Positions 13,011 through 27,296 of a stretch of 64,000 nt of DNA are shown piece by piece. Made by a program: the position numbers and the translations under genes. The notes below the pieces were generated by a model. It ran no database searches, was not told the DNA's origin, and saw only the letters and a list, made by a program, of their open reading frames with translations. This stretch comes from Cloacibacillus evryensis DSM 19522 (GTDB lineage Bacteria; Synergistota; Synergistia; Synergistales; Synergistaceae), in assembly GCF_000585335.1 (NCBI RefSeq), contig NZ_KK073872.1, forward strand, positions 1,293,283 through 1,357,282. The letters run 5' to 3'. Each line of letters begins with the position of its first letter. Within the stretch, counting starts at the first letter, position 1.

Positions 13011-13439
13011 TTATTCTTCCCGCGTCCTTAATACATGCTCTTCGCCGTCTGTCATCAGAAAGGCAGCCCAAAGCTCAAACGCCTCTTTTATATTCCTGGG
13101 ATCGTGCCCCGTCAGCACCCTTATCTTTTTGAGCCGGTACTGAAGGCTGTTGCGGTGAAGGTGCATTTTTCCCGCCGTCTTTGAACAGTTAAAAGGCGAT
13201 TCGCAGAAATTCATGAAGGTCTCGCGGAGTGTCTCAAAGTCGTTTCTTTCGGTAAGTTCCGCAAGGATATGCGCAGAGTAGTCTTCTTTAAAGGGCTCAG
13301 GAAGGCCCTTCAGCATTTCAGCTACTCCGGCCTGTTCCGCGTTTTCGGCATTGCCGATGAAATCCAGGCCGTCTATGTGCGTCAGTCTGTAAGCTTCCAA
13401 ACTTTTTTCGTTGACTGCGGCGCTTTCCATCTTCAGCAT
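13011..13439 (-). CDS. Truncated CdaR/PucR-type regulator (C-terminal HTH part)
   Basis: About 142 aa whose last third is the PucR/CdaR C-terminal helix-turn-helix: NCSKTAGKMHLHRNSLQYRLKKI followed by LTGHDPRNIKEAFELWAAF. Full-length sugar-diacid regulators are around 350-400 aa with an N-terminal sensor, so most of the protein is missing. The ATG at 13439 follows the GrdB-like stop by 7 nt with an AAGAAAG-like site; the frame is open further upstream, but that would overlap the neighbouring gene. It may be a functional short regulator or a remnant. Confidence 0.6.
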   Translation of the reverse strand: MLKMESAAVNEKSLEAYRLTHIDGLDFIGNAENAEQAGVAEMLKGLPEPFKEDYSAHILAELTERNDFETLRETFMNFCESPFNCSKTAGKMHLHRNSLQYRLKKIRVLTGHDPRNIKEAFELWAAFLMTDGEEHVLRTREE

Positions 13440-13446
13440 TCTTTCT

Positions 13447-14304
13447 TCAATTGACGATAAGGCAGGCGTCTTCGTCGGGCACTTCTTCAAGAAGCGCGAG
13501 CGCCCTGTCAAATAGCCTTTTGCGCCATTCTGCCTCCTGCTCCGGCGGGATGTCGGGATTCCCGAATACATGGCTTATATTGCTGCCCTTTAGTATCCGG
13601 CTGCATCCGACACCTTCCGATATCTGCGTCAGGTTTGTTACATGCACCACTGGGATACCGGCAATTTCGATCTCGCACGCCATATAGGCGCCGCATCTTG
13701 TGCTAGTGCCGCAGGTTGAAGTAAGTATGACCCCGTCGACTCCGTTATGCCTGAGTGAACACGCGATGCCCTGCCCCATTTCCCGGCTTTTTTCGACAGA
13801 CTGCATTACTCCGGCGGTCGAATAGAACGCCTCCAGCAGCGCGCCTATCCTTCCGCCGGCTTCGGCTGTTCGCGCGGCGTCAAGGGGAACGAGCCTGTTG
13901 GGGTCCTCAAGTACGAATTTATTGTAATACCCCTGGTGGCTCACTTCGTAATCTTCGGGCGACAGGCGCTTTTTCCCTTTGAACCGGTAGAGACGGAACT
14001 TGTCGGCGGCGACTGGGGGCTGGCAGTCGGGATTACCTGCCGGAACAAGCCCGCCGTCCGTAACGAGTGCGATCTTCGCCTCTTTCAGCGCTTTTGAAAG
14101 CTTTGCTACCGGTATTGACTGCGGCGGCGCGATACAAACTTCGCTCTTGAATCCCCGGCCGTGATATTTTGCCAGCAGCATATCGATACCTCTGACGGCC
14201 GCCGGAGTATTGTAATCTATCTCCGCGCCGGTCACGGCGGGCTTTGGAAGCCGACTGTCACGGCAACGCGGAGTCCATATAATATCGGGATATCGTTTAG
14301 GCAT
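13447..14304 (-). CDS. GrdB-family protein, Cys variant lacking the N-terminal third
   Basis: A 285-aa homologue of the selenoprotein subunit of glycine/sarcosine/betaine reductase protein B. It aligns from residue 27 onward with residues from about 175 of the Sec-containing paralogue nearby (shared IALVTDGGLVP.GNPD, DPNRLVP, YSTAGVM, ISHVFG). The position equivalent to Sec350 is Cys198 (TGC, 13711-13713) in TSTCGTSTRCGA. About 152 N-terminal residues of the family are absent and replaced by a short unrelated start. GAGGT precedes the ATG. The C-terminal catalytic region looks intact, so it is probably expressed rather than decayed. Confidence 0.78.
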   Translation of the reverse strand: MPKRYPDIIWTPRCRDSRLPKPAVTGAEIDYNTPAAVRGIDMLLAKYHGRGFKSEVCIAPPQSIPVAKLSKALKEAKIALVTDGGLVPAGNPDCQPPVAADKFRLYRFKGKKRLSPEDYEVSHQGYYNKFVLEDPNRLVPLDAARTAEAGGRIGALLEAFYSTAGVMQSVEKSREMGQGIACSLRHNGVDGVILTSTCGTSTRCGAYMACEIEIAGIPVVHVTNLTQISEGVGCSRILKGSNISHVFGNPDIPPEQEAEWRKRLFDRALALLEEVPDEDACLIVN

Positions 14305-14412: not shown

Positions 14413-14970
14413 TCAGGCAGCCTCGAGCGGGAATGCAAGGTTCGCCTTTATCTTTTTGAGCTTTTCAAAATAGATCATATAATTTGCCTGCATCCCCCCG
14501 CGCACCCATTCCATGATCACGCCGACATATGCGTAGGCTTCAAGGCGGCCCAGTATATAGAGTTCGTCTTCGGCAAGCTTGTATCCGACTTGAGTATATA
14601 CGGTAAGGATATGTATCTTCATAAGTTCGAAATAAGATTCCACGAGCGAATCCGAAAGCGAATTCTGCCCGACATAATTAAAGACTTCCATATAAAAATC
14701 GCGGTTCTGAAGCATGTACTTGCAGAGATTAACAAACCCGTCCAGATATCTTTCAGGGTCTGAGAACGTATTTATGACCGGCAGCGTCTCAGAATAGAAT
14801 ATCCAGTGTACCAGGTCATATTTATCGCGGAAATGGTAGTAAAAAACGTTCCTGCTCACTCCGCACTGAGAGGTTATGTCTTTCACTGTTATCTGTCCGA
14901 GCCTTTTCTTCTTCATGAGCTCTTTCAGACATACGCCGAGAGCAGTCTTTGTAATATCAGTTTTCGGCAT
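14413..14970 (-). CDS. TetR-family transcriptional regulator
   Basis: A 185-aa TetR protein. The N-terminal helix-turn-helix (about 24-50) reads QITVKDITSQCGVSRNVFYYHF followed by the usual KYDLV. The C-terminal ligand domain resembles the DhaS/TetR_C_8 type. It lies between the Sec-GrdB gene and the Cys-GrdB-like gene on the same strand, so it is a candidate regulator of both. GGGGAAGGG is placed upstream of the ATG. The ligand is unknown. Confidence 0.88.
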   Translation of the reverse strand: MPKTDITKTALGVCLKELMKKKRLGQITVKDITSQCGVSRNVFYYHFRDKYDLVHWIFYSETLPVINTFSDPERYLDGFVNLCKYMLQNRDFYMEVFNYVGQNSLSDSLVESYFELMKIHILTVYTQVGYKLAEDELYILGRLEAYAYVGVIMEWVRGGMQANYMIYFEKLKKIKANLAFPLEAA

Positions 14971-15066: not shown

Positions 15067-16383
15067 CTACTCTTTGATTATTGCGCGTTCCCCTTCCGCG
15101 GGCGTCTCTTCGAGCATATGGAGCGCCATCTCTACGCGCTTTTCTCTGTATGCCTTTTCACTGGGCAGAGGCAGCGTCGGATCTCCGAAAACATGCAGGA
15201 CGCTGTTTCCGCGGAGTATCCTGTTCGAGCCGATGCCCTCCGCGATCTTTGTAAGATTTGTCACTTGGATGATGGGGATTCCTGCGCGCTGTATCTCTTT
15301 TGTGATCATGGACCCGCCACGACTGCTCGTTCCTCAGGTGGAGGTTTCGATCGCGGCGTCGCAGCGGTCGGCGATCAGCTCCTTGGCGATGCCTTCGCCG
15401 AATTCCTTGCATTTTTCCATAGGCGTCATGACGCCTGCCGTTGAGTAGATGACATCGTCGACGCTGCCGATGATCCCCTCATCCGCCAGCTTGCGCAGCG
15501 CGTCTACGGGGACGAGTCTGTTTGGATCCTGAAGCACGAAGGCGTTGTTGTACCCCTGATGGCTGACTTCCCAGTCTTTAGCGTTCAGCGCATCCATGTC
15601 CTTGATCGAATAGCGTTTGTAGGCTCTTGAGTTTGTCGGCACCTGATTGTCCGGATTGCCCAGCGGCACAAGCCCTCCGTCCGTCACAAGCCCTATCCTG
15701 CATTCCGAAAGAGGCTTTTTGAGGACGGGGATCGGTATCTCTTCATGGTTTGGCATAATGACTTCGGTGTGGTAGGCTTTGCCCTCATGTTTTGCCAGAA
15801 GCATATCAATGCCTCTCTGCGCTGCGGGGATCGTATAGTCTATTATCACCGCGGGGCCGCTTCCATGATAGCGCTCCGCTTTTCCATCGCGGATCGCGTC
15901 GCCTGCGATGAGGCGCTTCGCAAAGGCTGCGATCTCGCCGATGACTTTTACCAGGTTTCTTGCGTTGTTGTCGCTCTGCAGGATATAGCACCGATTCTTA
16001 AACAGGTCGGTTCCCGGGTTCTCCGCAAAGAGCGCAGTTACCGCCGGTATCCTCAGCTCTTCCGTAACGGCGGCCGTCGTTGAGCCGCAGCCGAGCCCGT
16101 AACGCCCCGCGTTGAACCCTGGGCCCGCTACAAACAGGTCGGCCCCGGCGCCGCGCACGATATCTATTATTTGCGGGATTATCTCCTCGGGATGCTCCGC
16201 TATCGTATTGTCGCCGCAGACGATAGTCTTTACGATCTCGTAATCCGGTCCCAGCGCTTTTGCCAGCGCCGCTCCGGGACCGGCCGCGCCCTCTTTTACC
16301 GAAAGGCCGACGCTTGCCGTATCTTCGCCGCCCATTCCGGCATAGAACTGGTTAATGTAATGAACTACCTTTTTCTTAGTCAT
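15067..16383 (-). CDS. GrdB-family reductase selenoprotein (in-frame UGA = Sec350)
   Basis: Homologue of the selenocysteine subunit of glycine/sarcosine/betaine reductase component B (438 aa with readthrough). The N-terminus VVHYINQFYAGMGGEDT and the later FNAGRYG, ENPG and LVTDGGLVP.GNPD are family hallmarks. Two open stretches are joined through TGA at 15334-15336 (complement), giving TSTUGTSSRGG; Sec falls at residue 350, the family position. The strand continues without another stop to 15067 and retains family sequence (AGIPIIQVTNLTKIAEGIGSNRI). The two cysteines that normally follow the Sec (U..C..C) are Ser and Gly here. The ATG at 16383 overlaps the GrdE-like gene by 8 nt. GrdA, GrdC and GrdD are not in the window. 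Substrate unassigned. Confidence 0.9.
15334..15336 (-). other. UGA selenocysteine codon
   Basis: The TGA is preceded by codons for IETST and followed by GTSSRGGSMITKEI, matching the Sec position in the GrdB family. A small ACGA/TCGT stem with a GCAG loop begins 3 nt after the codon; a bacterial SECIS must lie just downstream, but its exact fold was not resolved by eye. Confidence 0.87.
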
Positions 16384-17647
16384 TGTTAGTTCCCTCCCTC
16401 GGTATATCGCTGTCCGTCGTAACATAGCAGTCTCCGAGCTGCGACCAGATGCCCTGGTAGCAGAAGTTCGTCGTATGCTTGAACGGCCCCCGCGGGTCCA
16501 GTCCCAGCAGGCACGGGACGTTGGCCTTTTCGCCGACGAGCCGATCGACTTTAGGATGATCGAGGTCCCAGTTCCTGCCGCTGTTGATAACCGCGTCAAC
16601 TTTCGGGTCCGCGATGACGAGCATGTCGCCCGGCTCATAATTGCTGACCGCAGACAAGTTCAGCGCCGCGGTCATGCCTAATTTCTGGCACCAGTTGAAG
16701 GCGAGAGCCGAGTCAAGCTGGCAGTGGCCCATCCCTGATTTATTCAGCATTACGCAGTCGGCTCCGAGCGTATCTTTGCAAAGCGTTGCTGAAATCATGC
16801 TCATAGTGTCTTTTCCGTCGATCTTCATAACGTTATTGTCAAAGACGACGCCGACAAACTCCAGGTCCTTGCCGTGGCGCTTCATCAGCTCTTTGATATA
16901 AACTTCGTTCTGAAGGAAATAATTCGGTTCCCAGTAACGCCATATCATCGCGCCGTCCAGTATCTCCGTAGGCTGGACGACGATGGGGAGGAAATTCAGC
17001 GCGCTCTGGCCGTAGTAGAGGAAATTCCACGTATCGTGGGAGGCCATGTGGGTAACGAGATAGGCGACCTTCGGCAGTTTCTTCTCCGCGGGGACAGGCT
17101 TGCGCTCGAATACTTCCGTTTCGTCGGGCTCAAGGCCTATTGTCAGCTTCGCAAGAAAAACGTTGACCGACAGCGACGCCCGTTTAAGAGCTTCGGCATA
17201 ACTTGCGTCTGAAACGCCTTCTCCCGGCGTCGCGTCTATGCATACGTGGAAATGACGCGAGAAATTGCTGTATTTGGCGCATGGGCCGCCCATATCCATA
17301 TAATATTTAACGTTGCACTTAGCGTAATAAATGTCTGAGACCACGACGCCTTTAAGCGCCACTGTGCGCCCTTCGCCCGCCGGGGCAAGCTTTCCCCAAA
17401 TACCGGGATATGATTCCTCTGGGTGATCGGCTCTGCAGCGCGGCTGCATGACGTCATGGAGCCCGAGGATGCGGCAGTTTTCACCGGGGCGCACCAACTG
17501 TATGTCAAGCGAACCGAAAAGATCGCTTGCGGCCTCTTTGAGCAGGTCTTCCTTGTTTACTGTAAGGACGCCCTTATCAAGCGAAGTTTTTTCTCCGAAT
17601 TTTACATCGCGGACTTTTATATAGTCTATCTGGAGTCTTTTAGTCAT
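16376..17647 (-). CDS. GrdE/GrdG/GrdI-family reductase component B, alpha/beta precursor-like
   Basis: A 423-aa homologue of the precursor subunit of glycine/sarcosine/betaine reductase protein B: VRDVKFGEKTSLDKGVLTVNKEDL at the N-terminus, GRTVALKG near 94, PTEILDGA at 226-233 and LMKRHGKDLEFVGVV near 254-268. In GrdE as I recall it, the segment after DGA contains the Cys at which the proprotein is cleaved to form a pyruvoyl group (SGNCVSACDKN). Here it is replaced by WRYWEPNYFLQNE, with no Cys between 137 and 289. Self-processing is therefore unlikely. It is translationally coupled to the Sec-GrdB gene. Confidence 0.85.
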   Translation of the reverse strand: MTKRLQIDYIKVRDVKFGEKTSLDKGVLTVNKEDLLKEAASDLFGSLDIQLVRPGENCRILGLHDVMQPRCRADHPEESYPGIWGKLAPAGEGRTVALKGVVVSDIYYAKCNVKYYMDMGGPCAKYSNFSRHFHVCIDATPGEGVSDASYAEALKRASLSVNVFLAKLTIGLEPDETEVFERKPVPAEKKLPKVAYLVTHMASHDTWNFLYYGQSALNFLPIVVQPTEILDGAMIWRYWEPNYFLQNEVYIKELMKRHGKDLEFVGVVFDNNVMKIDGKDTMSMISATLCKDTLGADCVMLNKSGMGHCQLDSALAFNWCQKLGMTAALNLSAVSNYEPGDMLVIADPKVDAVINSGRNWDLDHPKVDRLVGEKANVPCLLGLDPRGPFKHTTNFCYQGIWSQLGDCYVTTDSDIPREGTNND

Positions 17648-17665: not shown

Positions 17666-18916
17666 TTATCCTCTGCACGGAATGCCGTTCTGCTTGTATA
17701 TCTCTCCGTCTTTCATGACAAAGCTGATATTTTCTGTGCTCAGATCGCCCATATCTTTTAACGGATCTCCGTTGATCGCTGTGATATCGGCAAGCTTTCC
17801 CGGTTCAATGGTGCCGAGGCGGTCGTCCCATTTCATAAACTCCGCGCAGTACCGAGTTGCGCCGAGCAGAGTATCTTCGGGCGAGATGCCTGCCTCCGTC
17901 ATGCATTTGAACTCGCCGTGCTGTTTCCCGTGGACCATCAGCGGCGTGCCGGTATCTGTGCCGAAAAGGCAGCGGACTCCGCGCTCATATATTTTCTTGA
18001 TATTCTTGGCATGCTGAGGCGAGAGAAACGCCGCCTTCGCAACCGTGGCGTCGCCCACTCCGCGCTCTTTGCCGTGCGTCATAACGCCGCGGAACGTAAG
18101 CAGCGTTGGCACCGCGCATACGTTGTTTTCAAGCATGTAGTCGATGCATTCGTCGTCGGCCAGCGTGCAGTGTTCGATCGAAGAGATGCCCGCGCGGGCT
18201 GCGTCTTTAATGCCGGAGGTGCCGTGCGCATGGCAGGAGATGACGACGTTGTGCATCTTTGCCACGTCGACGGCCGCTTTTATCTCGTCATAGTCCATAT
18301 TCTGCCCGCCGATATCTCCGCTGTTGCTGTAGACGCCGCCGGTGACCATGATCTTGAGGAAATCGACGCCGAACTTGAGCATCGTTCTGCAGGCCGTCCG
18401 CACTTCGTAAGGCCCGTCGGCCGAATTGACCGGTTTGAAGTTCTGCTGCCCGAAAGAATCCTGGGGATAACTTGTCGACATATGCCCGCCGGTCTGCGTG
18501 ATATACATTCCGCTTGTAAAGATGCGCGGGCCCCATGTTATTCCTTTGTTGACCGCGTCGCGGATGCACTGGCTGCCGCGGACTGAAGTGAAGCCGAGGT
18601 CGCGGACGGTGGTGAATCCGCCCATAAGGTCGTCCTGCACATTTCTAACGGCCTTGACGCAGACCAGCGCCTCCGGTTCGTTGACTTCGCTGATGGAAAG
18701 CCCTCCGCCGAACGCGATATGGACATGGCCGTCGATCAGCCCCGGCATTACAAACTTGTCGGACAGGTCGATCAGTTCTTCGCCCGGAAGCGGCTTGTAA
18801 TCCTCTGCGCTTATCACTTCTGTGATCTTGCTGCCTTCGACGCGGACGACTTTATTCTTTTCCGCATTGCCGTCGCGCGCGCTGAAAAGCTTTCCGCACT
18901 TGATTGCTGCTTTCAT
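17666..18916 (-). CDS. Metal-dependent amidohydrolase
   Basis: A 416-aa amidohydrolase-superfamily enzyme of the imidazolonepropionase/prolidase-like group. Metal and catalytic motifs are visible in order: HVH at 64-66, the Lys in FLKIMVTGG that is usually carboxylated, His in SCHAHGTSG, His in SIEHCT and Asp in FGTDTGTPL. It would hydrolyse a C-N (amide or cyclic amide/imine) bond in the cytoplasm. It is 18 nt upstream of the GrdE-like gene, so it may release or open the substrate of that reductase. GGAGGT precedes the ATG. The exact substrate is unknown. Confidence 0.85.
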   Translation of the reverse strand: MKAAIKCGKLFSARDGNAEKNKVVRVEGSKITEVISAEDYKPLPGEELIDLSDKFVMPGLIDGHVHIAFGGGLSISEVNEPEALVCVKAVRNVQDDLMGGFTTVRDLGFTSVRGSQCIRDAVNKGITWGPRIFTSGMYITQTGGHMSTSYPQDSFGQQNFKPVNSADGPYEVRTACRTMLKFGVDFLKIMVTGGVYSNSGDIGGQNMDYDEIKAAVDVAKMHNVVISCHAHGTSGIKDAARAGISSIEHCTLADDECIDYMLENNVCAVPTLLTFRGVMTHGKERGVGDATVAKAAFLSPQHAKNIKKIYERGVRCLFGTDTGTPLMVHGKQHGEFKCMTEAGISPEDTLLGATRYCAEFMKWDDRLGTIEPGKLADITAINGDPLKDMGDLSTENISFVMKDGEIYKQNGIPCRG

Positions 18917-19068: not shown

Positions 19069-19161
19069 TCACCTGCCGCAGCTGCACACCAGCGATATTT
19101 CCAGCAGGCCGCTTTTCGCTTCAAGCGGAGGACGGTATACTGTTTCTTCCAGCGTAGTCAT
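19069..19161 (-). CDS. Small 30-residue ORF coupled to the MFS gene, C-terminal CSCGR
   Basis: The ATG (19159-19161) overlaps the MFS stop as ATGA, the classical coupling arrangement. The frame encodes MTTLEETVYRPPLEAKSGLL plus EISLVCSCGR, then TGA. It has no homologue that I recognise. The two closely spaced Cys at the C-terminus after a short leader-like peptide recall small metal-binding or modified peptides, but no maturation enzyme is nearby. Its reality rests on the overlap only. Confidence 0.35.
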   Translation of the reverse strand: MTTLEETVYRPPLEAKSGLLEISLVCSCGR

Positions 19162-20402
19162 TGCTGTCTGCCTCTCTTCAGCGGCAAGCCGTTGGGACAG
19201 AAGCGGCGGCCTGCGCATGCGGCGCGTTTCTCCCCGGGCAGGATGCAGACCAGGATCACGCCGATAAATGAGACGGCGCCTGCGCAGAGGATAGCGGCCG
19301 ATATGCCTGCATTCCTCAGGACAAGCGACGCTCCCAAAGAGCCGGCGGCAAGGCCCGCCATCGTCAGAGATAGGACGGTCCCGACGTTGTCAGTGCCAAA
19401 AGAATCCGCGATCGTCGGGGTAAAGCAGGCCTGTATCCCGCCGTAAGAAAAACTCAGCATACAGAAGCAGAGGATATAAAGCGCGCCGGAAGAGACAGAC
19501 AGTACGACCGCGGCGGCGGTTGAGATAAGGAATCCGATAGTAAAGGCCGTTTTGCGCCCCGTAACATCGCTCAACGCCGGAAGTATGAAACGGCCTGCGA
19601 TCTGGCAGAGCGACGCCAGGCTCACGCCTAACGCGGCCGTGGAAAAGGCAAGGCCCTTTTCTGCCCCAAACGTAACGAACAGGGCGCTGAGAAGCAAATA
19701 TGCGGGCACTGCGCAGAAATAAAGCCCCGTCAATATCCAGAACGTTCTGGAACAAAAAATCTCGTTTATCTTGAGCGCTGCGTTTTTTTGTCCGACATCC
19801 TTTAATTTAACTCCGTCTGCGGGCGGATCTTTCAGCATGAGCAGGCCCACCGCGCCGGCAGCCGCATACACCGGGATCTGGGCAAAGTACGTTCCAGAAA
19901 ATCCATACTTCCTTAACCATATACCCAGTACGGGGCTGAAAATTGCAGCGGACAGCCCCATCATCCCTAAAGTCAGGCCGGAAGCAACCCCTTTTTTATC
20001 GGGGAACCATTTCGGCATGAGCGCAAGCACTGCATTGTAAATGATGCCGTCTCCTATGCCGAATATGACGCCGTATGTAAACGGCATTGCCCAAAAGCAT
20101 TCCGGCGGCAGGAGCGCCGTAAGCGCCAATCCTGCGATCATCAGCCCGTAACCCGCCGCCAGCGTTGCCGGAAGAGAACTTCTGCGCCTTATCATGGCCC
20201 CGGTAAAGTTTCCTATACAAAACGCCGCTATCAGAATCGAAAAAGGAAGCCCCGCCGCCGCTGAATCGACTCTGAAGTACTGCATTACGACCGGCTGTAT
20301 GAGGCTGTAATCATAATAGATCCCCATTACCAGCATACAGGCCATTGCAGAAGCCAACACCGCATATCTGTTCGTATCTCTGCAGAATTTCATTGAACAC
20401 AC
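19158..20402 (-). CDS. MFS transporter, OFA (oxalate/formate antiporter)-like
   Basis: A 414-aa integral membrane protein with about 12 hydrophobic segments and the MFS features GVIFGIGDGIIYN and LMPKWFPDKKGVASGL that are typical of the OFA/monocarboxylate group. It should exchange or import a small organic acid. It stands between the Grd-like cluster and the sugar-acid operon on the same strand, with 120 nt separating it from the lactonase gene, so it may serve either pathway. The substrate cannot be told from sequence. Confidence 0.82.
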   Translation of the reverse strand: MCSMKFCRDTNRYAVLASAMACMLVMGIYYDYSLIQPVVMQYFRVDSAAAGLPFSILIAAFCIGNFTGAMIRRRSSLPATLAAGYGLMIAGLALTALLPPECFWAMPFTYGVIFGIGDGIIYNAVLALMPKWFPDKKGVASGLTLGMMGLSAAIFSPVLGIWLRKYGFSGTYFAQIPVYAAAGAVGLLMLKDPPADGVKLKDVGQKNAALKINEIFCSRTFWILTGLYFCAVPAYLLLSALFVTFGAEKGLAFSTAALGVSLASLCQIAGRFILPALSDVTGRKTAFTIGFLISTAAAVVLSVSSGALYILCFCMLSFSYGGIQACFTPTIADSFGTDNVGTVLSLTMAGLAAGSLGASLVLRNAGISAAILCAGAVSFIGVILVCILPGEKRAACAGRRFCPNGLPLKRGRQQ

Positions 20403-20522: not shown

Positions 20523-21578
20523 TTAAAACTCAGCAAATATAATGCACACCGGGCTTCCGGTGTTTACGGCGTCTCCCCGTTTTTCAAGCGCTCCGTTTTC
20601 TTTGATCTCATATCTTACGATCGTGTCGGAATCCTCGTTGGCCGCGTAAAGAGTGCGGCCGTCCGGGCCCAGCGTTATGAATCTCGGTGTTCTGCCGTAC
20701 GAAGAGATCCATTCCGAGGCAGAGATCATTCCCGTCGCCGGGTCTATTGCGAAATGCGCGATCGAATCATGTATCCTGTTTGACACATACAGATTCATGC
20801 CGTCGCCGGTGATCACTATGCCGCTTGCCTGGCCGTTCCCTGTATATGTATCGGGGAGCACCGGCAGTATCTGTTTTGGCGTAAGCGTGCCTGAGGCGGG
20901 ATCGTAATGATGGAAGCAGACCGTGTTGTCTTTTTCGTTTACAAGATAGCAGTATCCGCCGTTGGGATGGAACGCCATATGCCTTGCCTCCGCGCGGTCG
21001 CGCGTTTTGAGGGTGGTTTTTTCGCGAAAGGACCCGTCTGCAGGGTCGAATTCAAAGACTGTCGTCTTTGATAAACCCGCCTTGCGGCCCTGCGCTGGGA
21101 CGATAAGAAAATTCTCGCCCCTGTCAAAAACAGTCTGGTGCGGGTGCGATATCTCTCCGGGGCCTATGCCCGAAATAAAGGCCTGCCCGACCATATCCGA
21201 TAGGGACCCGTCCGCGTCTTTCCTGAAAGAGACGACGCTTCCCGTCTGGAGGTTTGCGGCGATCAGCCAGCGGTCCGTCTTGTCCGGCGTTATGAATACG
21301 GGGTTCTCGCCGCCGGTGGAGACGGTATTGAGCTTGAACAGGCCGCCGTCGCTCTTATCTACTTTAAATGCCGTCGCTTCGCTGTAGTCTCCGTGCACCG
21401 TATAAAGATGCTCATGGGCCTTATCAAAGCAAAGATAAGAGGGATTGGGAGTTATGGGGAAACCGCCGCATTTTGTCCACTCGCCCGTGATTTCATCAAT
21501 GGTGAATATTTCTATCCCTTTGCCGCGCGCGTTTCTTTTCTGCGTCGTCCGGCATCCAACATAGGCGTAAACAGTCAT
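20523..21578 (-). CDS. 6-phosphogluconolactonase-like beta-propeller lactonase
   Basis: A 351-aa seven-bladed propeller of the YbhE/Pgl lactonase family: YAYVGCRTTQ start, NPSYLCFD, HPHQTVF, AEARHMAFHPNG, GNGQASGIVIT and the terminal GRTPRFI...LYAANEDSDTIV segments mark the blades. Family members hydrolyse sugar lactones. The gene lies in an operon with a dehydratase and dehydrogenases for sugar acids, so a lactone of an aldonate or uronate is the likely substrate rather than the pentose-phosphate intermediate. The MatC-like gene is 18 nt upstream. Confidence 0.85.
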   Translation of the reverse strand: MTVYAYVGCRTTQKRNARGKGIEIFTIDEITGEWTKCGGFPITPNPSYLCFDKAHEHLYTVHGDYSEATAFKVDKSDGGLFKLNTVSTGGENPVFITPDKTDRWLIAANLQTGSVVSFRKDADGSLSDMVGQAFISGIGPGEISHPHQTVFDRGENFLIVPAQGRKAGLSKTTVFEFDPADGSFREKTTLKTRDRAEARHMAFHPNGGYCYLVNEKDNTVCFHHYDPASGTLTPKQILPVLPDTYTGNGQASGIVITGDGMNLYVSNRIHDSIAHFAIDPATGMISASEWISSYGRTPRFITLGPDGRTLYAANEDSDTIVRYEIKENGALEKRGDAVNTGSPVCIIFAEF

Positions 21579-21596
21579 CTTATTTTCCTCCTCGGC

Positions 21597-22862
21597 CTAT
21601 CCGCAGATAGGTTTGAATATGAACGCCGCAATGACAGCGACAAAAGCTACGAAACAGAATGAGAGTATGAAACATCTTGCAAAAAGCTTCTGCTGTTCCT
21701 TAACGTCGCAGCGCGCTTCCTGTGAATATACGGCCAGGATGAGGCTGCCTCCGGTCGAGAGCGGGCTGATCCCCGCAACGGTGGCGGCTCCCACTATGCC
21801 CATCGTCATTTCCATTACGCCCGGCATCCCGCTTCCGAGCTGCTGCGCGATCCGCGGCAGCGTCGGGATTAGCGTCGGGAATACGACTCCGTTTGCGGAG
21901 CTGAACCATGAGAGGATGCCTCCCGTCAGCGCCATCACCGAGGGCGCCGTCGCCTTGTTCATGACGGAGGCAAGCATGTTTGAAAGAAGCGCGATGCCGC
22001 CAAGTTCCTGCGTCACGTTCATCAGTACGGAGACGCCGGAGATGAGGATGAGCACGTTCCACTGGATGAGTTTGAGAGCCTTCTGCTCATTGGCCGCGCC
22101 GAAAAGCACGAGCACAAAACCGAGAGTGAAGGAGACGAGCCCTACGTCCCATTTAAGGAGGACTACGGCGCATACCAGAAACAGCAGCGAGGCAAGCCCC
22201 ATTTTCTGCGAATTATTGAAGGCGGGCAGCGATTCGCTCTTTATAGTGTCATCCGGCGAAAGCCTATAACCTTTGAACCAGATATATGTGACCAGCGCGC
22301 AGAGGAAATTTACCGCCGTTATCCCAAAGAGCAGGATCCACTGCGAGTTCGGAACAGATATATTTTGCGCCGCAAACAGGTCGCTTATAATGATGCCCGT
22401 CAGCGCGATCGGCGATACGGTGCCGCCGACCGCCCCGAGAAACGCCGGCGTGGCGAGAAGCAGCGGGTCCACCTTCATCTGCACCGCGAGCGTGACCGCG
22501 AACAATATGGTGACCGCCTGCGCTGAGATGGCTCCGGGGCCGGCCGCCGAAAGCGCGTAGGCCGTTACGTAGAGAATGATCGGTATCAGAAACGCGTTCT
22601 TCCCGACCGCCGCGATTATCTTCTGCGAGAGAAGTTCAAGCGTCTTATTCTCCTGCAGGAGCGCAAAGAAGAACATCGTGCCAAGCAATGTGATGAACAG
22701 CTTTGTCGGGAATCCTGCGAATATCACTTTAAGCTTCAGGCCGCCGATAAGCGCAAGCAGGAGCACTAGCCCGAAGGCCGCTATCCCTACGTTTATCTTT
22801 TTTATGAATCCTATTGCAATCGCTCCGATAAGGAACCCGAGAGCTATTATCTGCATTGTCAT
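21597..22862 (-). CDS. MatC-like dicarboxylate/organic acid carrier
   Basis: A 421-aa very hydrophobic protein with 10-12 membrane segments, resembling the dicarboxylate carrier MatC/SLC13-like group: an N-terminal INVGIAAFGLVLLLALIGG stretch, GPGAISAQAV and a C-terminal GISPLSTGGSLIL. It probably imports the acid that the operon degrades. It is flanked by the lactonase and the dehydratase in a tight minus-strand operon. It is related to, but not the same as, the TRAP-type DctM subunits. Confidence 0.82.
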   Translation of the reverse strand: MTMQIIALGFLIGAIAIGFIKKINVGIAAFGLVLLLALIGGLKLKVIFAGFPTKLFITLLGTMFFFALLQENKTLELLSQKIIAAVGKNAFLIPIILYVTAYALSAAGPGAISAQAVTILFAVTLAVQMKVDPLLLATPAFLGAVGGTVSPIALTGIIISDLFAAQNISVPNSQWILLFGITAVNFLCALVTYIWFKGYRLSPDDTIKSESLPAFNNSQKMGLASLLFLVCAVVLLKWDVGLVSFTLGFVLVLFGAANEQKALKLIQWNVLILISGVSVLMNVTQELGGIALLSNMLASVMNKATAPSVMALTGGILSWFSSANGVVFPTLIPTLPRIAQQLGSGMPGVMEMTMGIVGAATVAGISPLSTGGSLILAVYSQEARCDVKEQQKLFARCFILSFCFVAFVAVIAAFIFKPICG

Positions 22863-22887
22863 TCAGTCCATCTCCTTTTATGTGTGA

Positions 22888-24525
22888 TCAGAAAAGCCAG
22901 AGCGCGCCTTCATCCGAACCGCTGACGCATTCTCTGTACCGCCTGAGCATGCCTTCGGCTTTATGGTCGGGCCGCGCCGCGCTGCGGAGCCTTTCCCGTA
23001 TCTCTTCGTCGGTCAGCTCGACCTGTATCGTTCCTTCGTCAAGGTCTATGTCAACCATGTCGCCGTTTCTTACCGCCGCGATGGGGCCGCCTTCCCAGGC
23101 TTCAGGAGATATGTGCCCGACACACGGGCCGCGCGTGGCGCCGGAAAAACGCCCGTCCGTTATCATGGCTGCCGACTTGTGCAGCCCCATCCCTACGAGC
23201 ATCGCCGCGGGAATAGACATCTCGCGCATTCCGGGGCCGCCCTTCGGCCCTTCATAACGGATGACCAGCACCGAGCCGGGCTTTACCTGCCCGCCTTCAA
23301 GGTGTTTCAGAACGTCCTCTTCAGATTCGAAGACGACGGCGGGGCCGCGGTGTTTGAACATCGACGCCTCGACGCCGCTTTTTTTAACGACGCAGCCCTT
23401 GGGGGCAAGATTGCCGTAAAGGACCGCAAACGTCCCGTTTTTCAGCAGCGCATTATCTTCTTCACATATCACGGATGCGTCAAAGGGAGGGCGTATTTCG
23501 TCGCGCAGCGTTCCGCCTGTTATTCTTGGCGTGTCGAGGTCGAGATGAGAACGTATTGCCCACATAGTCGCCGGCACTCCGCCTGCGTTATGATAATCGC
23601 TCATGTTGAAGTCCGAGGACGGCTTGAACTTTGCGATAACGGGGACCTCTTTCTGTATCCTGTCGAAGTTCTGAAGCGTAAGAGGTATCCCCAGCGTTTT
23701 TGCGATAGCGAGCACATGCAGCGCCGCGTTTGTCGAGCCGCCCGTTGCGGAGATGTGCTTTATACCGTTTTCAACCGAGCGCCTGTTCATGAAATACGAA
23801 AAGGGCTTGCCTTCATGAACGAGTTCAACTATCCGTTCGCCCATATCACGCGCCTGTTTTGCCTTGGCGGACGAACAGAAGAACTCCGTCGCGGAACCGA
23901 AGGGGCAGACGCCCGCCGCCTCTGCGAAGACGGCCATCGTGTTTGCCGTTCCGTACATTGAACAGGTCCCGCACGAATGGCAGATATTAGCTTTGAAATC
24001 GCGGAACTCATCTTCCGTGACCGTTCCTTTTGAACGGCTTCCTATCGCCTCTTTAAGGTCGGAGGTGATATAGGTCTTTCCTTTGTTTTCATAAGGAACC
24101 ATAGCACCAGCTGTCAAAAATACGGACGGGCGGTCAAGCAGCGCGGCCGCCATCAGCATGCCGGGGACGATCTTGTCGCAGGAGCAGAGGAAGACGAGGC
24201 CGTCGAAGCCGTGGGCGCGCGCCATCGACTCGATCGAAGCGGCGATAAGGTCGCGCTGCGGCAATACATAATTCATGCCGCGTATCTGCGCCATTCCGTC
24301 GCACGGCGCCGGCACGTTGAACTCCGCGGGCGTACCTCCGGCGGCCCATACTCCCTCTTTTACGCGCTCCGCCAGCTCCCGCAGCGGACGGTGTCCGGGG
24401 TTTACCTCGTTCCACGAATTGACGATCCCAATGAGCGGTTTTTCAATGTCTTTGTTGCGGAATCCCGCCGCGTTCATAAGGCCGATATAGTAAGCTTCCT
24501 GAGAGTTCGTGTCTGCTTTGATCAT
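22888..24525 (-). CDS. IlvD/Edd-family dehydratase (probable sugar-acid dehydratase)
   Basis: A 545-aa dehydratase with the family Fe-S cysteines in [17 protein letters not shown] and [16 protein letters not shown], and the C-terminal [21 protein letters not shown]. Members include dihydroxyacid dehydratase (valine/isoleucine synthesis), phosphogluconate dehydratase and aldonate dehydratases. No ilv genes are nearby. The neighbours are a lactonase, a carrier and three dehydrogenase/isomerase genes, so dehydration of an imported sugar acid to a 2-keto-3-deoxy acid is the favoured role. IlvD itself cannot be excluded. Confidence 0.87.
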
Positions 24526-24530
24526 GACGG

Positions 24531-25418
24531 TCAGCCCTTTCTGAATTCCGTTCCCAGAAGTTTTTCAAAAACTTTTATCATAGCGCCTTTTCCGAGCTCT
24601 CCGTAGCCTGAACGAAGCGCCTGCTGGTAGGTCGCCGTGGCTGCGGCGAGCACCGGCATCGGGATCGACTGCGACGCCGATATCTCAGCGGCGCTGACAA
24701 GGTCTTTATATGCGTTCTTCATCGCGTATCCTTCTGAGAAGTTCCCTTCGAGGGCGCGGGGCAGGAAAAATTCCGAGGCGTAACTGCGCCCCGTGCCGCT
24801 GTTTATGACGGACGCCGTCTTTTCCGGATCGAGCCCCATCAGAGCGGCCATAGGAACGACCTCCGCGATCGCGGCGGCGTTGATGTCGAAGAGCAGCTGG
24901 TTGATAAGCTTCGTAAGCTGCCCGGCTCCGTTCTTTCCCATATAAAGGATATTTGTGCCGATCATTTTCAGCAGTGGCTCTATACGGCGGAAGGTTTCTT
25001 CCTTCCCTCCGCACATGACCGTGAGCGTACCGTCTATCGCGCGCGCCTCCATACCGGATATCGGGCAGTCCATGAACTCTATCCCGGTCTCCGCGCAGCC
25101 CTCCGCCACATCCATCGCGGCTTTCCAGCTGATAGTGCTGAGGTCAGCAAGCACAGCGCCCTTTTTCATTTTGGATATAAGCCCGTTTTTGCCGAGCGCG
25201 GTCTTCTTTACGATATCGCCGTTAGGGAGACAGAGAAAGATAACGCCGGCCTCGCAGATATCGTCGGTATTGCCCGTCGTCTTTACATTTTTCAGCCCGC
25301 TGAACTTCGCAAGGTTCGACTCGTTTATATCAAATACCGTCAGTTCATCGCCGCCTTTTGCAAGGTTCATCGCAATCGGCGCTCCCATCTTCCCCAGGCC
25401 TGCGAAAGAAATCTTCAT
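24531..25418 (-). CDS. 3-hydroxyisobutyrate/tartronate-semialdehyde-type dehydrogenase
   Basis: A 295-aa beta-hydroxyacid dehydrogenase: N-terminal Rossmann motif [10 protein letters not shown], the FLCLPN strand, [11 protein letters not shown] substrate loop and the catalytic Lys in GQLTKLINQ. It reduces or oxidises a small hydroxy-aldehyde/acid such as tartronate semialdehyde or 3-hydroxyisobutyrate, using NAD(P). It begins 5 nt before the dehydratase gene in the transcript direction, with a good GGAGGT ahead of its own ATG. Confidence 0.88.
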
Positions 25419-25423
25419 AACTC

Positions 25424-26236
25424 TTACCTCCCCGTTTCTTGTTTGACGTTATTCAGGAAATCGAATGCACGCCGCGCGGCGGTCTCCTGATCCGGTTCCT
25501 GTTTTATTTCTGTTGAGTACCACCCGTCGTATCCGCATGCGGCGATAGTCCCGATGATCTCTCTGCACGGCATCGCGCCGTCTCCGGGCGCAAGGCGCTT
25601 TTCTCCCGAACAGTGCACGAGGCCGAAATCCACCGCGTTTTTAACTATTGAGGCAAATAGAAGCGGTTCGTTGATTTGCGCGTGAAACATATCGAAGATG
25701 AATTTCATATTCTCGATGCCGGCCTCCTTCTTAAAGCGCTGCGCCTGCTCCAGGTCGTTCATATAATTTGAATTTGACGCGCCCTGCGGCTCGACAAGGA
25801 AGGGAATGCCGGCGGTTGTACACTGCTCCGAGATATCCCTAAATGCTTTTTCGGCGTTCAGGAGAGAATCAGCCTCTTCTGAGACGCGGCCGCGGAAACT
25901 GCCGATACAGAACGGCGCGCCGAGCTCGGAGGCAAATCTTATAACTTCCCCGGCTCTTTCAAGCGCGGCTGCGCGGACCTCCGGGTCGGGCGACGAGATA
26001 AAGAGTTTGTCCGCTTTGACCGCCGGAGTGAGGCCCACCGCCGCGATCTTTATTCTGTATTTTCCGCAGAGACGCTTTGTTTCATCCGCAAGTTCCGGCG
26101 CAGGACGGCGCACCATAAGCTCGGCACCCTCGTACCCGATCTTCGCAAGCAGCGCGAAACTTTCTTCGTAAGGCCCGTAAAGCCCCATTATCCTGACGCC
26201 CGCGTCCGGCGTCGTCAGCGGGTAGCAGAGTCTCAT
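25424..26236 (-). CDS. Xylose-isomerase-like TIM-barrel protein (sugar phosphate isomerase/epimerase)
   Basis: A 270-aa AP-endonuclease-2-fold protein of the sugar isomerase/epimerase group, related to hydroxypyruvate isomerase and dehydrogenase-associated isomerases. Metal-ligand candidates are Glu in FLVEPQG, Asp/His in FIFDMFHAQ, His in LVHCSG and Glu in YSTEIKQEP. The ATG at 26236 (MRLCYPLTTP) is preferred, since the longer frame overlaps the previous gene. It sits 1 nt after the Ldh_2 gene. It would interconvert an intermediate of the acid pathway. Confidence 0.83.
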   Translation of the reverse strand: MRLCYPLTTPDAGVRIMGLYGPYEESFALLAKIGYEGAELMVRRPAPELADETKRLCGKYRIKIAAVGLTPAVKADKLFISSPDPEVRAAALERAGEVIRFASELGAPFCIGSFRGRVSEEADSLLNAEKAFRDISEQCTTAGIPFLVEPQGASNSNYMNDLEQAQRFKKEAGIENMKFIFDMFHAQINEPLLFASIVKNAVDFGLVHCSGEKRLAPGDGAMPCREIIGTIAACGYDGWYSTEIKQEPDQETAARRAFDFLNNVKQETGR

Positions 26237-26237
26237 A

Positions 26238-27296
26238 TCAGTCGAACTTGGGGCCGAGAGCAATTTTATAAAGCTCGGCCGTCTGCCTGATATCTTTTAC
26301 GATATTCTCTGAAAGCGGGATGCCGTTTTCCATGCGCGCCTTCGTCTTTTCCGCCTCCGGTTCGCCCGGCATCATGATCCTTTTGCAGCCGTCCGCTTTC
26401 GGCAGGTTTGTCAGCCTGCGGTAGAATTCGTCCATGCGCGCCGCAAGTTCTTCACGCGGGATAAAGAGGTCGGGCTTCATGAAGAAGAAGATATGCCCGA
26501 CGTTCTGCGGAGCGCTGTGGTCGAAGTAGAGGCTCTTGACGTCGCCGCCGTAATTGGCTCCCGTGAACATGCCGCTCAGCAGATCCATCAGCATGGCAAG
26601 CGCCGCGCCTTTTGGGCCGCCGAACGGAAGGCAGACGCCTGCGAATGCCTTCTTTGCGTCGGTCGTCGGCTTGCCGTCGGAATCGAGCGCGAGCCCAAGC
26701 GGGATCTCTTCATTATTCGTTGCGGCGACTCTGATCTTGCCGCGCGCGATAATAGTCATCGCCATGTCGAGTATGTAATCCGGAGAATTTTTGCCGCCCG
26801 GTATGCCTGCCGCCAGCGGGGCCGCGCCGAGAAAGGCGACCTTTGCGCCGACAGGTGCAAGCGCGGGCGAAGAGTTGGTAAACGCCATGCAGACGTATCC
26901 GGCCTCTACCGCCTGCTGGACATAGGACGCTGACATTCCGAAGTGGGTGCTTTTGTGAACGCCGACGACGGCGATGCCCGTCTTTTCCGCAAGGGCGGTC
27001 CCCTCTTCAACGGCGCGGTGCGAGGCGAGGAATCCCATTCCGTCGTCCCCGTCCAACAGGATCGCGGCGGGCGCCGTCTGCGTGCTTTTTATCTCAGGCC
27101 GCGGGTTGACGACACCTCTTCTTATCCTTTCAAGATACATGGGGATCCTTGACACGCCGTGCGAAGTCAGGCCCCGGAGATCCGCCGATACAAGGTCGCG
27201 CGCGACCGTCCCCGCGTCTTCCTTCCTCAGCCCGCCCGCTTCAAAAAGTGAAGCGGCCATGCCGATCAATTCTCTGTGGCTGAACACTCTGTCCAT
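26238..27296 (-). CDS. Ldh_2-family malate/L-lactate/diketogulonate-type dehydrogenase
   Basis: A 352-aa member of the Ldh_2 (malate/L-sulfolactate/ureidoglycolate/2,3-diketogulonate) oxidoreductase family: the DLRGLTSHGVSRIP motif near 38, KSTHFGMS near 115, the GGPKGAALAMLMDLLSGM stretch and a C-terminal PGEPE. It uses NAD(P) to interconvert a 2-oxo acid and hydroxy acid. It is the promoter-proximal gene of the operon, with AAAGGAG ahead of the ATG, and faces the LysR gene across 130 bp. Confidence 0.88.
   Translation of the reverse strand: MDRVFSHRELIGMAASLFEAGGLRKEDAGTVARDLVSADLRGLTSHGVSRIPMYLERIRRGVVNPRPEIKSTQTAPAAILLDGDDGMGFLASHRAVEEGTALAEKTGIAVVGVHKSTHFGMSASYVQQAVEAGYVCMAFTNSSPALAPVGAKVAFLGAAPLAAGIPGGKNSPDYILDMAMTIIARGKIRVAATNNEEIPLGLALDSDGKPTTDAKKAFAGVCLPFGGPKGAALAMLMDLLSGMFTGANYGGDVKSLYFDHSAPQNVGHIFFFMKPDLFIPREELAARMDEFYRRLTNLPKADGCKRIMMPGEPEAEKTKARMENGIPLSENIVKDIRQTAELYKIALGPKFD

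What the first reader, a model, noticed from the sequence alone, without database searches (positions are those of the whole stretch)
16376..17647. GrdE-family partner without the pyruvoyl-forming Cys segment
In GrdE-type proproteins the segment after PTE(V/I).DGA contains the Cys at which the chain is cleaved to make the pyruvoyl (carbonyl) group that binds the amine substrate. Here PTEILDGA is kept, but the following residues are WRYWEPNYFLQNE, and there is no Cys between residues 137 and 289. The remainder aligns well. A protein B that keeps Sec but cannot form the carbonyl cofactor suggests a substrate that is not bound as a Schiff base.
Basis: partly seen in the sequence, partly recalled or inferred. 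Interest (0 to 1): 0.78.

Follow-up and report, generated by a model that had tools for sequence, protein, structure and literature searches.

The report
Fluoroacetate reductase subunit FarE
This gene encodes FarE, the already described partner of a selenium enzyme that lets certain gut bacteria break down the poison fluoroacetate, and it has lost the chemical group its relatives use to hold amine substrates; beside it sits an undescribed gene pair that may be its poison sensor.

Summary
In detail: the GrdE homologue at 16376-17647 (-) has no cleavable Cys. The Asn-Cys loop of GrdE is deleted and replaced by [WFY]RYW[ED]. This is no accident. All 31 related loci share the loop, which forms one clade (100/100) in a tree built without the loop columns. 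It is not new: the protein matches NCBIfam fluoroAc_FarE at 912 bits (cutoff 675), and the paper on farACEB (PMC10838667) already states that FarE lacks the pyruvoyl cysteines. Fluoroacetate has no amine, and the only other lost-Cys loop that could be assigned to a substrate is that of betaine (no Schiff base possible), while glycine and sarcosine types keep Asn-Cys. New here: a short GrdB half-protein with Cys in place of Sec (13447-14304), which I found in no description of far. All 18 copies found lie within 4.4 kb of a farE, nearly always beside a DhaS-like TetR gene and once fused to it. It keeps FarB's diagnostic residues. I propose it is the fluoroacetate sensor. Also new: a 30-codon remnant of radical-SAM farC.

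The parts
16376..17647 (-). farE: GrdE-family subunit of fluoroacetate reductase, 423 aa, no pyruvoyl-forming Cys
   Evidence: NCBIfam NF053623 fluoroAc_FarE 912.4 bits, cutoff 675; PF09338 252.9 bits; 86% identical to the copy in the other genome of the same genus, G137
16907..16972 (-). Replaced cleavage loop of FarE (residues 226-247, PTEILDGAMIWRYWEPNYFLQN); R237-Y238-W239 (16931-16939) in all 31 far loci
15067..16383 (-). farB: GrdB-family selenoprotein partner, 438 aa; Sec codon UGA at 15334-15336; CxxC replaced by SSRG; start overlaps the end of farE by 8 bases
14413..14970 (-). TetR-family regulator of the DhaS kind, linked to far loci; proposed far regulator
   Evidence: TIGR02366 95.7 bits (below its cutoff of 129), PF14278 and PF00440; neighbourhoods
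13447..14304 (-). Short GrdB-like protein (285 aa, C-terminal half only), Cys198 (13711-13713) in place of Sec; proposed fluoroacetate sensor subunit (called cGrdB here)
19158..20402 (-). farA: MFS transporter of the oxalate/formate antiporter or lactate type
   Evidence: NCBIfam SfMCT 175.8 and 2A0111 143.4 bits, both below cutoff; same position as farA in the C. porcorum-type locus L069
19069..19161 (-). Remnant of farC (radical SAM): first 30 codons only, then a stop; no full farC elsewhere in this genome
   Evidence: 80% identity over 30 aa, E 1e-9; genome search
17666..18916 (-). Amidohydrolase (PF01979) between the farC remnant and farE, in this far locus only; probably the 'hutI' of the published map
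   Evidence: PMC10838667 Fig. 3 legend

Best explanation
This is FarE, the non-selenium subunit of fluoroacetate reductase. FarE and the selenoprotein FarB form a protein-B complex of the glycine reductase kind. Fluoroacetate is bound without a covalent link to FarE. The selenolate of FarB attacks the CH2F carbon and expels fluoride. The resulting Se-carboxymethyl group passes to the shared glycine reductase proteins A and C, which make acetyl phosphate. Because the substrate has no amine there is nothing for a pyruvoyl group to hold, and the Asn-Cys self-cleavage loop has been deleted and replaced by an invariant Arg-Tyr-Trp loop, which I infer (not shown) helps seat the carboxylate and the fluorine. 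Shown here: identity, loss of the cleavage site, clade-wide conservation, Sec-coding partner, one grdA gene in the genome. Published: the operon is induced about 5,000-fold by fluoroacetate, and three species with it release fluoride. Inferred: role of the loop, absence of cleavage, and the catalytic steps. As an extension, the adjacent Cys-containing half-GrdB and DhaS-like TetR are proposed to be the fluoroacetate sensor of the operon.
For: NCBIfam equivalog FarE 912 bits against cutoff 675, while three paralogues of the same genome score 162-179. Loop identical in kind in 31 of 31 far loci; one clade 100/100 with the loop columns removed. Sharp gap in the phylum between 61-86% relatives and 35% paralogues. 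Partner FarB with in-frame UGA; grdA with one UGA elsewhere in the genome. Gene order MFS, farC remnant, farE, farB as in farACEB. Loop type follows substrate chemistry: glycine and sarcosine Asn-Cys, betaine SGSFM, fluoroacetate RYW. Pyruvoyl at the Cys of C. difficile GrdE (peptide 242-266) was shown by mass spectrometry in PMC9908766. Operon induction, fluoride release and the missing FarE cysteines are in PMC10838667.
Against: No assay of purified FarEB is reported in what I could read; the published link rests on expression and whole-cell fluoride release. The authors themselves suggested the preferred substrate may be another, amine-containing, compound. No fluoride riboswitch lies in ten far loci or in the window, which mildly argues against fluoride stress being the norm. 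The far clade has spread to many gut Firmicutes, where fluoroacetate supply is doubtful. Folding of the stretch after the farB UGA gave no SECIS support (z 0.11).
Confidence: 0.93

Rival explanations
1. FarEB in this clade evolved for another small carboxylate that cannot or need not form a Schiff base (for example another haloacetate or an X-CH2-COO- compound), and fluoroacetate is a fortuitous substrate.
For: Far loci are common in gut Firmicutes and carry lactate-permease, M20 peptidase or alpha/beta-hydrolase genes; no fluoride riboswitch; the authors also doubted fluoroacetate as the preferred substrate.
Against: About 5,000-fold induction by fluoroacetate and little by glycine in C. porcorum (PMC10838667). 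No alternative substrate has been shown.
Confidence: 0.35
2. The carbonyl needed for catalysis is made elsewhere, for instance by radical-SAM FarC converting a residue of FarB, so a Schiff-base route remains.
For: Suggested as a possibility in PMC10838667; radical-SAM genes lie in or near six of the listed far loci, two of them the same locus.
Against: In this genome farC survives only as a 30-codon remnant and no other copy exists, as published for C. evryensis, which still degrades fluoroacetate (reduced by 40%). Most far loci lack farC within the flanks. Fluoroacetate cannot form a Schiff base.
Confidence: 0.04
3. FarE is a degenerate, non-functional GrdE relic.
For: It lacks the cleavage residue.
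Against: Open frame, 61-86% identity over full length in distant genomes, invariant loop, start of farB overlapping its end.
Confidence: 0.01
4. The short Cys-GrdB beside far is not a sensor but a Cys-based alternative catalytic subunit or a repair partner for oxidised FarB.
For: PrdB of D-proline reductase is likewise short and catalytic (TIGR04483 match); the Cys at the Sec position is invariant and the RCG Cys is kept.
Against: Nearly always beside, and once fused to, a TetR regulator; FarEB occurs without it in several loci, with TetR still present in L060 and L062.
Confidence: 0.3

Closest known systems
FarE / farACEB fluoroacetate reductase of Cloacibacillus porcorum MFA1 (PMC10838667; NCBIfam NF053623)
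   Same: Equivalog-level sequence match, same loop loss, Sec partner lacking CxxC, MFS neighbour, published in what is most likely the same genus
   Different: In this genome farC is reduced to a 30-codon remnant and an amidohydrolase stands in its place
GrdE (glycine) and GrdG (sarcosine) of protein B
   Same: Family PF09338, full-length homology (about 30% identity), pairing with a GrdB-type selenoprotein
   Different: They keep the Asn-Cys loop that self-cleaves to the pyruvoyl group; FarE has it deleted
GrdI (betaine)
   Same: No Asn-Cys at the site (SGSFM loop; partners pass the GrdH cutoff); substrate cannot form a Schiff base
   Different: Separate clade; loop is substituted, not deleted
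PrdA of D-proline reductase
   Same: Distant homologue with pyruvoyl site
   Different: FarE matches TIGR04480 at only 19 bits (cutoff 700)
DhaS-DhaQ of Lactococcus lactis (recalled, not retrieved)
   Same: TetR-type activator paired with a paralogue of the enzyme's own substrate-binding subunit
   Different: Different enzyme; here the proposed sensor is a Cys half-copy of a selenoprotein, function untested

Membership tests
FarE, fluoroacetate reductase (NF053623) | Score above curated equivalog cutoff of 675 bits | tested here: met
   912.4 bits, residues 1-416 of 423
FarE, fluoroacetate reductase (NF053623) | Lacks the cysteines of the pyruvoyl site | tested here: met
FarE, fluoroacetate reductase (NF053623) | Followed by farB with Sec codon and without CxxC | tested here: met
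   TSTUGTSSRGG
FarE, fluoroacetate reductase (NF053623) | Operon with farA and farC | tested here: inconclusive
   MFS farA present; farC only as 30-codon remnant; the published C. evryensis operon also lacks farC
FarE, fluoroacetate reductase (NF053623) | Releases fluoride from fluoroacetate with FarB | not testable with these tools
   Shown for whole cells of related strains in PMC10838667
GrdE-type pyruvoyl proprotein | PF09338 homology | tested here: met
   252.9 bits
GrdE-type pyruvoyl proprotein | Asn-Cys cleavage site after DGA | tested here: not met
   Segment deleted
GrdE-type pyruvoyl proprotein | Self-cleavage and N-terminal carbonyl | not testable with these tools
   Needs mass spectrometry
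PrdA | TIGR04480 cutoff 700 bits | tested here: not met
   19 bits
GrdB selenoprotein (for the short protein 13447-14304) | Sec codon at the active site | tested here: not met
   Cys198 in STCGTSTRCG; no in-frame UGA
DhaS-type regulator (for 14413-14970) | TIGR02366 cutoff 129 bits | tested here: not met
   95.7 bits: related, not an equivalog

The most novel reading that the evidence does not exclude
The far locus carries its own substrate sensor made from a copy of the enzyme: a half-length FarB paralogue with Sec changed to Cys binds (or is carboxymethylated by) fluoroacetate and switches a DhaS-like TetR regulator, which explains the strong induction by fluoroacetate. In one Pyramidobacter-group genome the two are a single TetR-GrdB protein.
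Probability: 0.45. Interest if true: 0.62.

Novelty: already known. Interest (0 to 1): 0.38.

Why it matters
Anaerobic cleavage of a C-F bond by a selenoenzyme complex is rare and useful, and this shows which part of the amine-reductase scaffold had to change: the amine-binding carbonyl loop was deleted. The link between loop type and substrate gives a quick way to read substrate class from sequence for the other unassigned protein-B clades. If the sensor idea holds, it is a direct handle on how these bacteria detect a livestock poison, and a ready biosensor part.

Tried and rejected
Another Cys at the cleavage site: rejected by alignment and predicted secondary structure. Solved homologue: none by sequence. 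Foldseek on the AF2 model gave no match at E 0.001 or better, and VIA-align 2 gave only middling matches of the C-terminal Rossmann-like part (best Z 8.5), which say nothing of function. Fluoride riboswitch near far genes: none. Viral contigs: no relatives. A shared operator palindrome for the TetR: none found across loci; TAAAACGTTTTA upstream of farA occurs only in the window. Reading the short GrdB as a pseudogene fragment: rejected by conservation at 18 genomic places. The amidohydrolase as a general far component: rejected, only in this locus. Folding after the farB UGA was not better than shuffles. A search for papers on DhaS-DhaQ found nothing usable, so that analogy is from memory.

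Full report
Identity. The ORF at 16376-17647 (-) encodes 423 aa. It matches NCBIfam NF053623, fluoroacetate reductase subunit FarE, over residues 1-416 at 912 bits against a cutoff of 675, while three paralogues of the same genome score 162-179 bits. The published system is farACEB of Cloacibacillus porcorum MFA1, also found in C. evryensis and Pyramidobacter piscolens (PMC10838667). That paper states that FarE lacks the two cysteines for autocatalytic pyruvoyl formation and is not a proprotein, and that FarB lacks CxxC. The window is most likely from C. evryensis or a very close species: same genus as a 3,585,187-base genome whose far locus has the full farA-farC-farE-farB order (L069), no complete farC here, and an amidohydrolase that fits the 'hutI' of the published cluster map. 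The species name is inference.

Observation. Cys positions are 58, 71, 111, 123, 136, then 290 onward. In an alignment of 88 family members the SGNCVSACDK segment faces a gap in FarE, and DGA is followed by a short [WFY]RYW[ED] loop. Cys290 and Cys298 align downstream, and in the AF2 model (pLDDT 91.3, pTM 0.92) lie in a helix and at a strand start. In the canonical paralogue L002 the Asn-Cys lies in a predicted loop. Neither a Cys nor a Ser is available in the FarE loop for pyruvoyl formation.

Clade. All 31 far loci have the loop. They come from Synergistota (three families), Lachnospiraceae, Oscillospiraceae, Clostridiaceae, Atopobiaceae and a Deltaproteobacterium MAG. With the loop columns removed, the 23 representatives form one clade at 100/100, and every loop type in the set needs only one change except Asn-Cys, with two. 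Midpoint rooting is for drawing only.

Loop and substrate. GrdB partners of SGNCVSACDK proteins pass the glycine cutoff (L009, partner of L001; and the partner in L077). Partners of SGNCVAPCDK proteins pass the sarcosine cutoff (L094, L089). Three of four tested Firmicute partners of SGSFM proteins pass the betaine cutoff; the fourth scores 757 against 775, and the window genome's own scores 684. Thus the amine substrates that can form a Schiff base go with Asn-Cys, and betaine and fluoroacetate, which cannot, go without. Mass spectrometry of C. difficile GrdE places the pyruvoyl at the start of peptide 242-266 (PMC9908766). Other altered loops exist with unknown substrates: GLxGQ (L006, L137-L139), HCGGFRC (L026, L036, L148; grouped with FarE at 100/99 on long branches, root unknown), and SHNTVC/AHCTVC (L004, L005, L146, L147).

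Mechanism. Supported by sequence and literature: non-covalent binding of fluoroacetate, attack by the FarB selenolate, transfer to GrdA. One grdA with an in-frame UGA is in the genome. The invariant Arg-Tyr-Trp as carboxylate and halide site is my inference; a second block is also rewritten (EEGxGNPD to NKSGMGHxQLD). No step has been shown with purified protein in what I could read.

What is new around it. First, downstream of farB lie a DhaS-like TetR gene (14413-14970) and a short GrdB (13447-14304), C-terminal half only, with Cys198 at the Sec position. A search of 188 Synergistota genomes listed about 150 GrdB matches. Apart from seven, every listed match has an in-frame UGA; these seven all lie near a farE. 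In 15 other far genomes, 11 more such genes lie within 4.4 kb of farE. All 18 distances are 0.9-4.4 kb. The only other UGA-free matches there were weak PrdB-like proteins (about 50 bits) in two Clostridiaceae and a short fragment in G193. The short gene and the TetR gene are adjacent and co-oriented, often overlapping, in most loci; divergent in L048, flanking farEB in L058, and fused in one 525-aa frame in L070. In a tree, FarB and the short proteins form one group apart from all other GrdB (100/99). The short proteins share FarB's diagnostic residues rather than those of GrdB: TDGGLVP against TSGGIVP, HQG against HGG, GVM against GTG, GTS against GTC. I therefore propose a sensor made from a copy of the enzyme with a weaker nucleophile, working through the TetR regulator, by analogy with DhaS-DhaQ (from memory). 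It would account for the published 300- to 5,000-fold induction by fluoroacetate. The paper's main text that I read does not describe it, though its map shows regulators and it counts eight grdB genes as selenoproteins; its supplements were not read. Second, window 19069-19161 is the first 30 codons of farC (80% identity, E 1e-9), overlapping the end of farA, followed by a stop; no other farC exists in the genome. This agrees with the published statement that the C. evryensis operon lacks the radical-SAM gene and still works at reduced rate.

Verdict. The finding is real and the interpretation correct, but both are published; novelty lies in the companion sensor candidate, the farC remnant, the wider spread and the loop-to-substrate rule.

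Noticed in passing
13447-14304 and 14413-14970 (-): Short Cys-form GrdB paralogue of FarB beside a DhaS-like TetR; all 18 copies found lie within 4.4 kb of a farE; fused with TetR in L070 4209-5786. Candidate fluoroacetate sensor.
   Followed up: yes
19069-19161 (-): 30-codon remnant of radical-SAM farC overlapping the end of farA; no complete copy in the genome.
   Followed up: yes
17666-18916 (-): Amidohydrolase inside the far locus, absent from the other far loci examined; could release a haloacetate or other acid from an amide, untested.
   Followed up: partly
L026, L036, L148 (GrdE-type, loop HCGGFRC; GrdB partner of L148 has STUGTSTRCG): A distinct protein-B type without Asn-Cys that groups with FarE in the tree; substrate unknown.
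   Followed up: partly
L006, L137, L138, L139 (loop GLxGQ) and L004, L005, L146, L147 (loop AHCTVC/SHNTVC, L005 beside a proline-racemase-like gene): Further protein-B clades with altered cleavage loops and no assigned substrate.
   Followed up: partly
L047-L060, L067, L068, L071-L073: Far loci in Lachnospiraceae and Pyramidobacter often carry an L-lactate permease, an M20 peptidase, alpha/beta hydrolases or a DSBA-like protein, hinting at the natural substrate's source or uptake.
   Followed up: partly
13011-13571 (-): ORF with only the C-terminal helix-turn-helix of a PucR/CdaR-type regulator; looks truncated.
   Followed up: no
20523-26263 (-): Lactonase, MatC/CitMHS-like transporter, dihydroxy-acid dehydratase and 3-hydroxyisobutyrate-dehydrogenase-like genes in a row, likely a sugar-acid catabolic cluster.
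   Followed up: no
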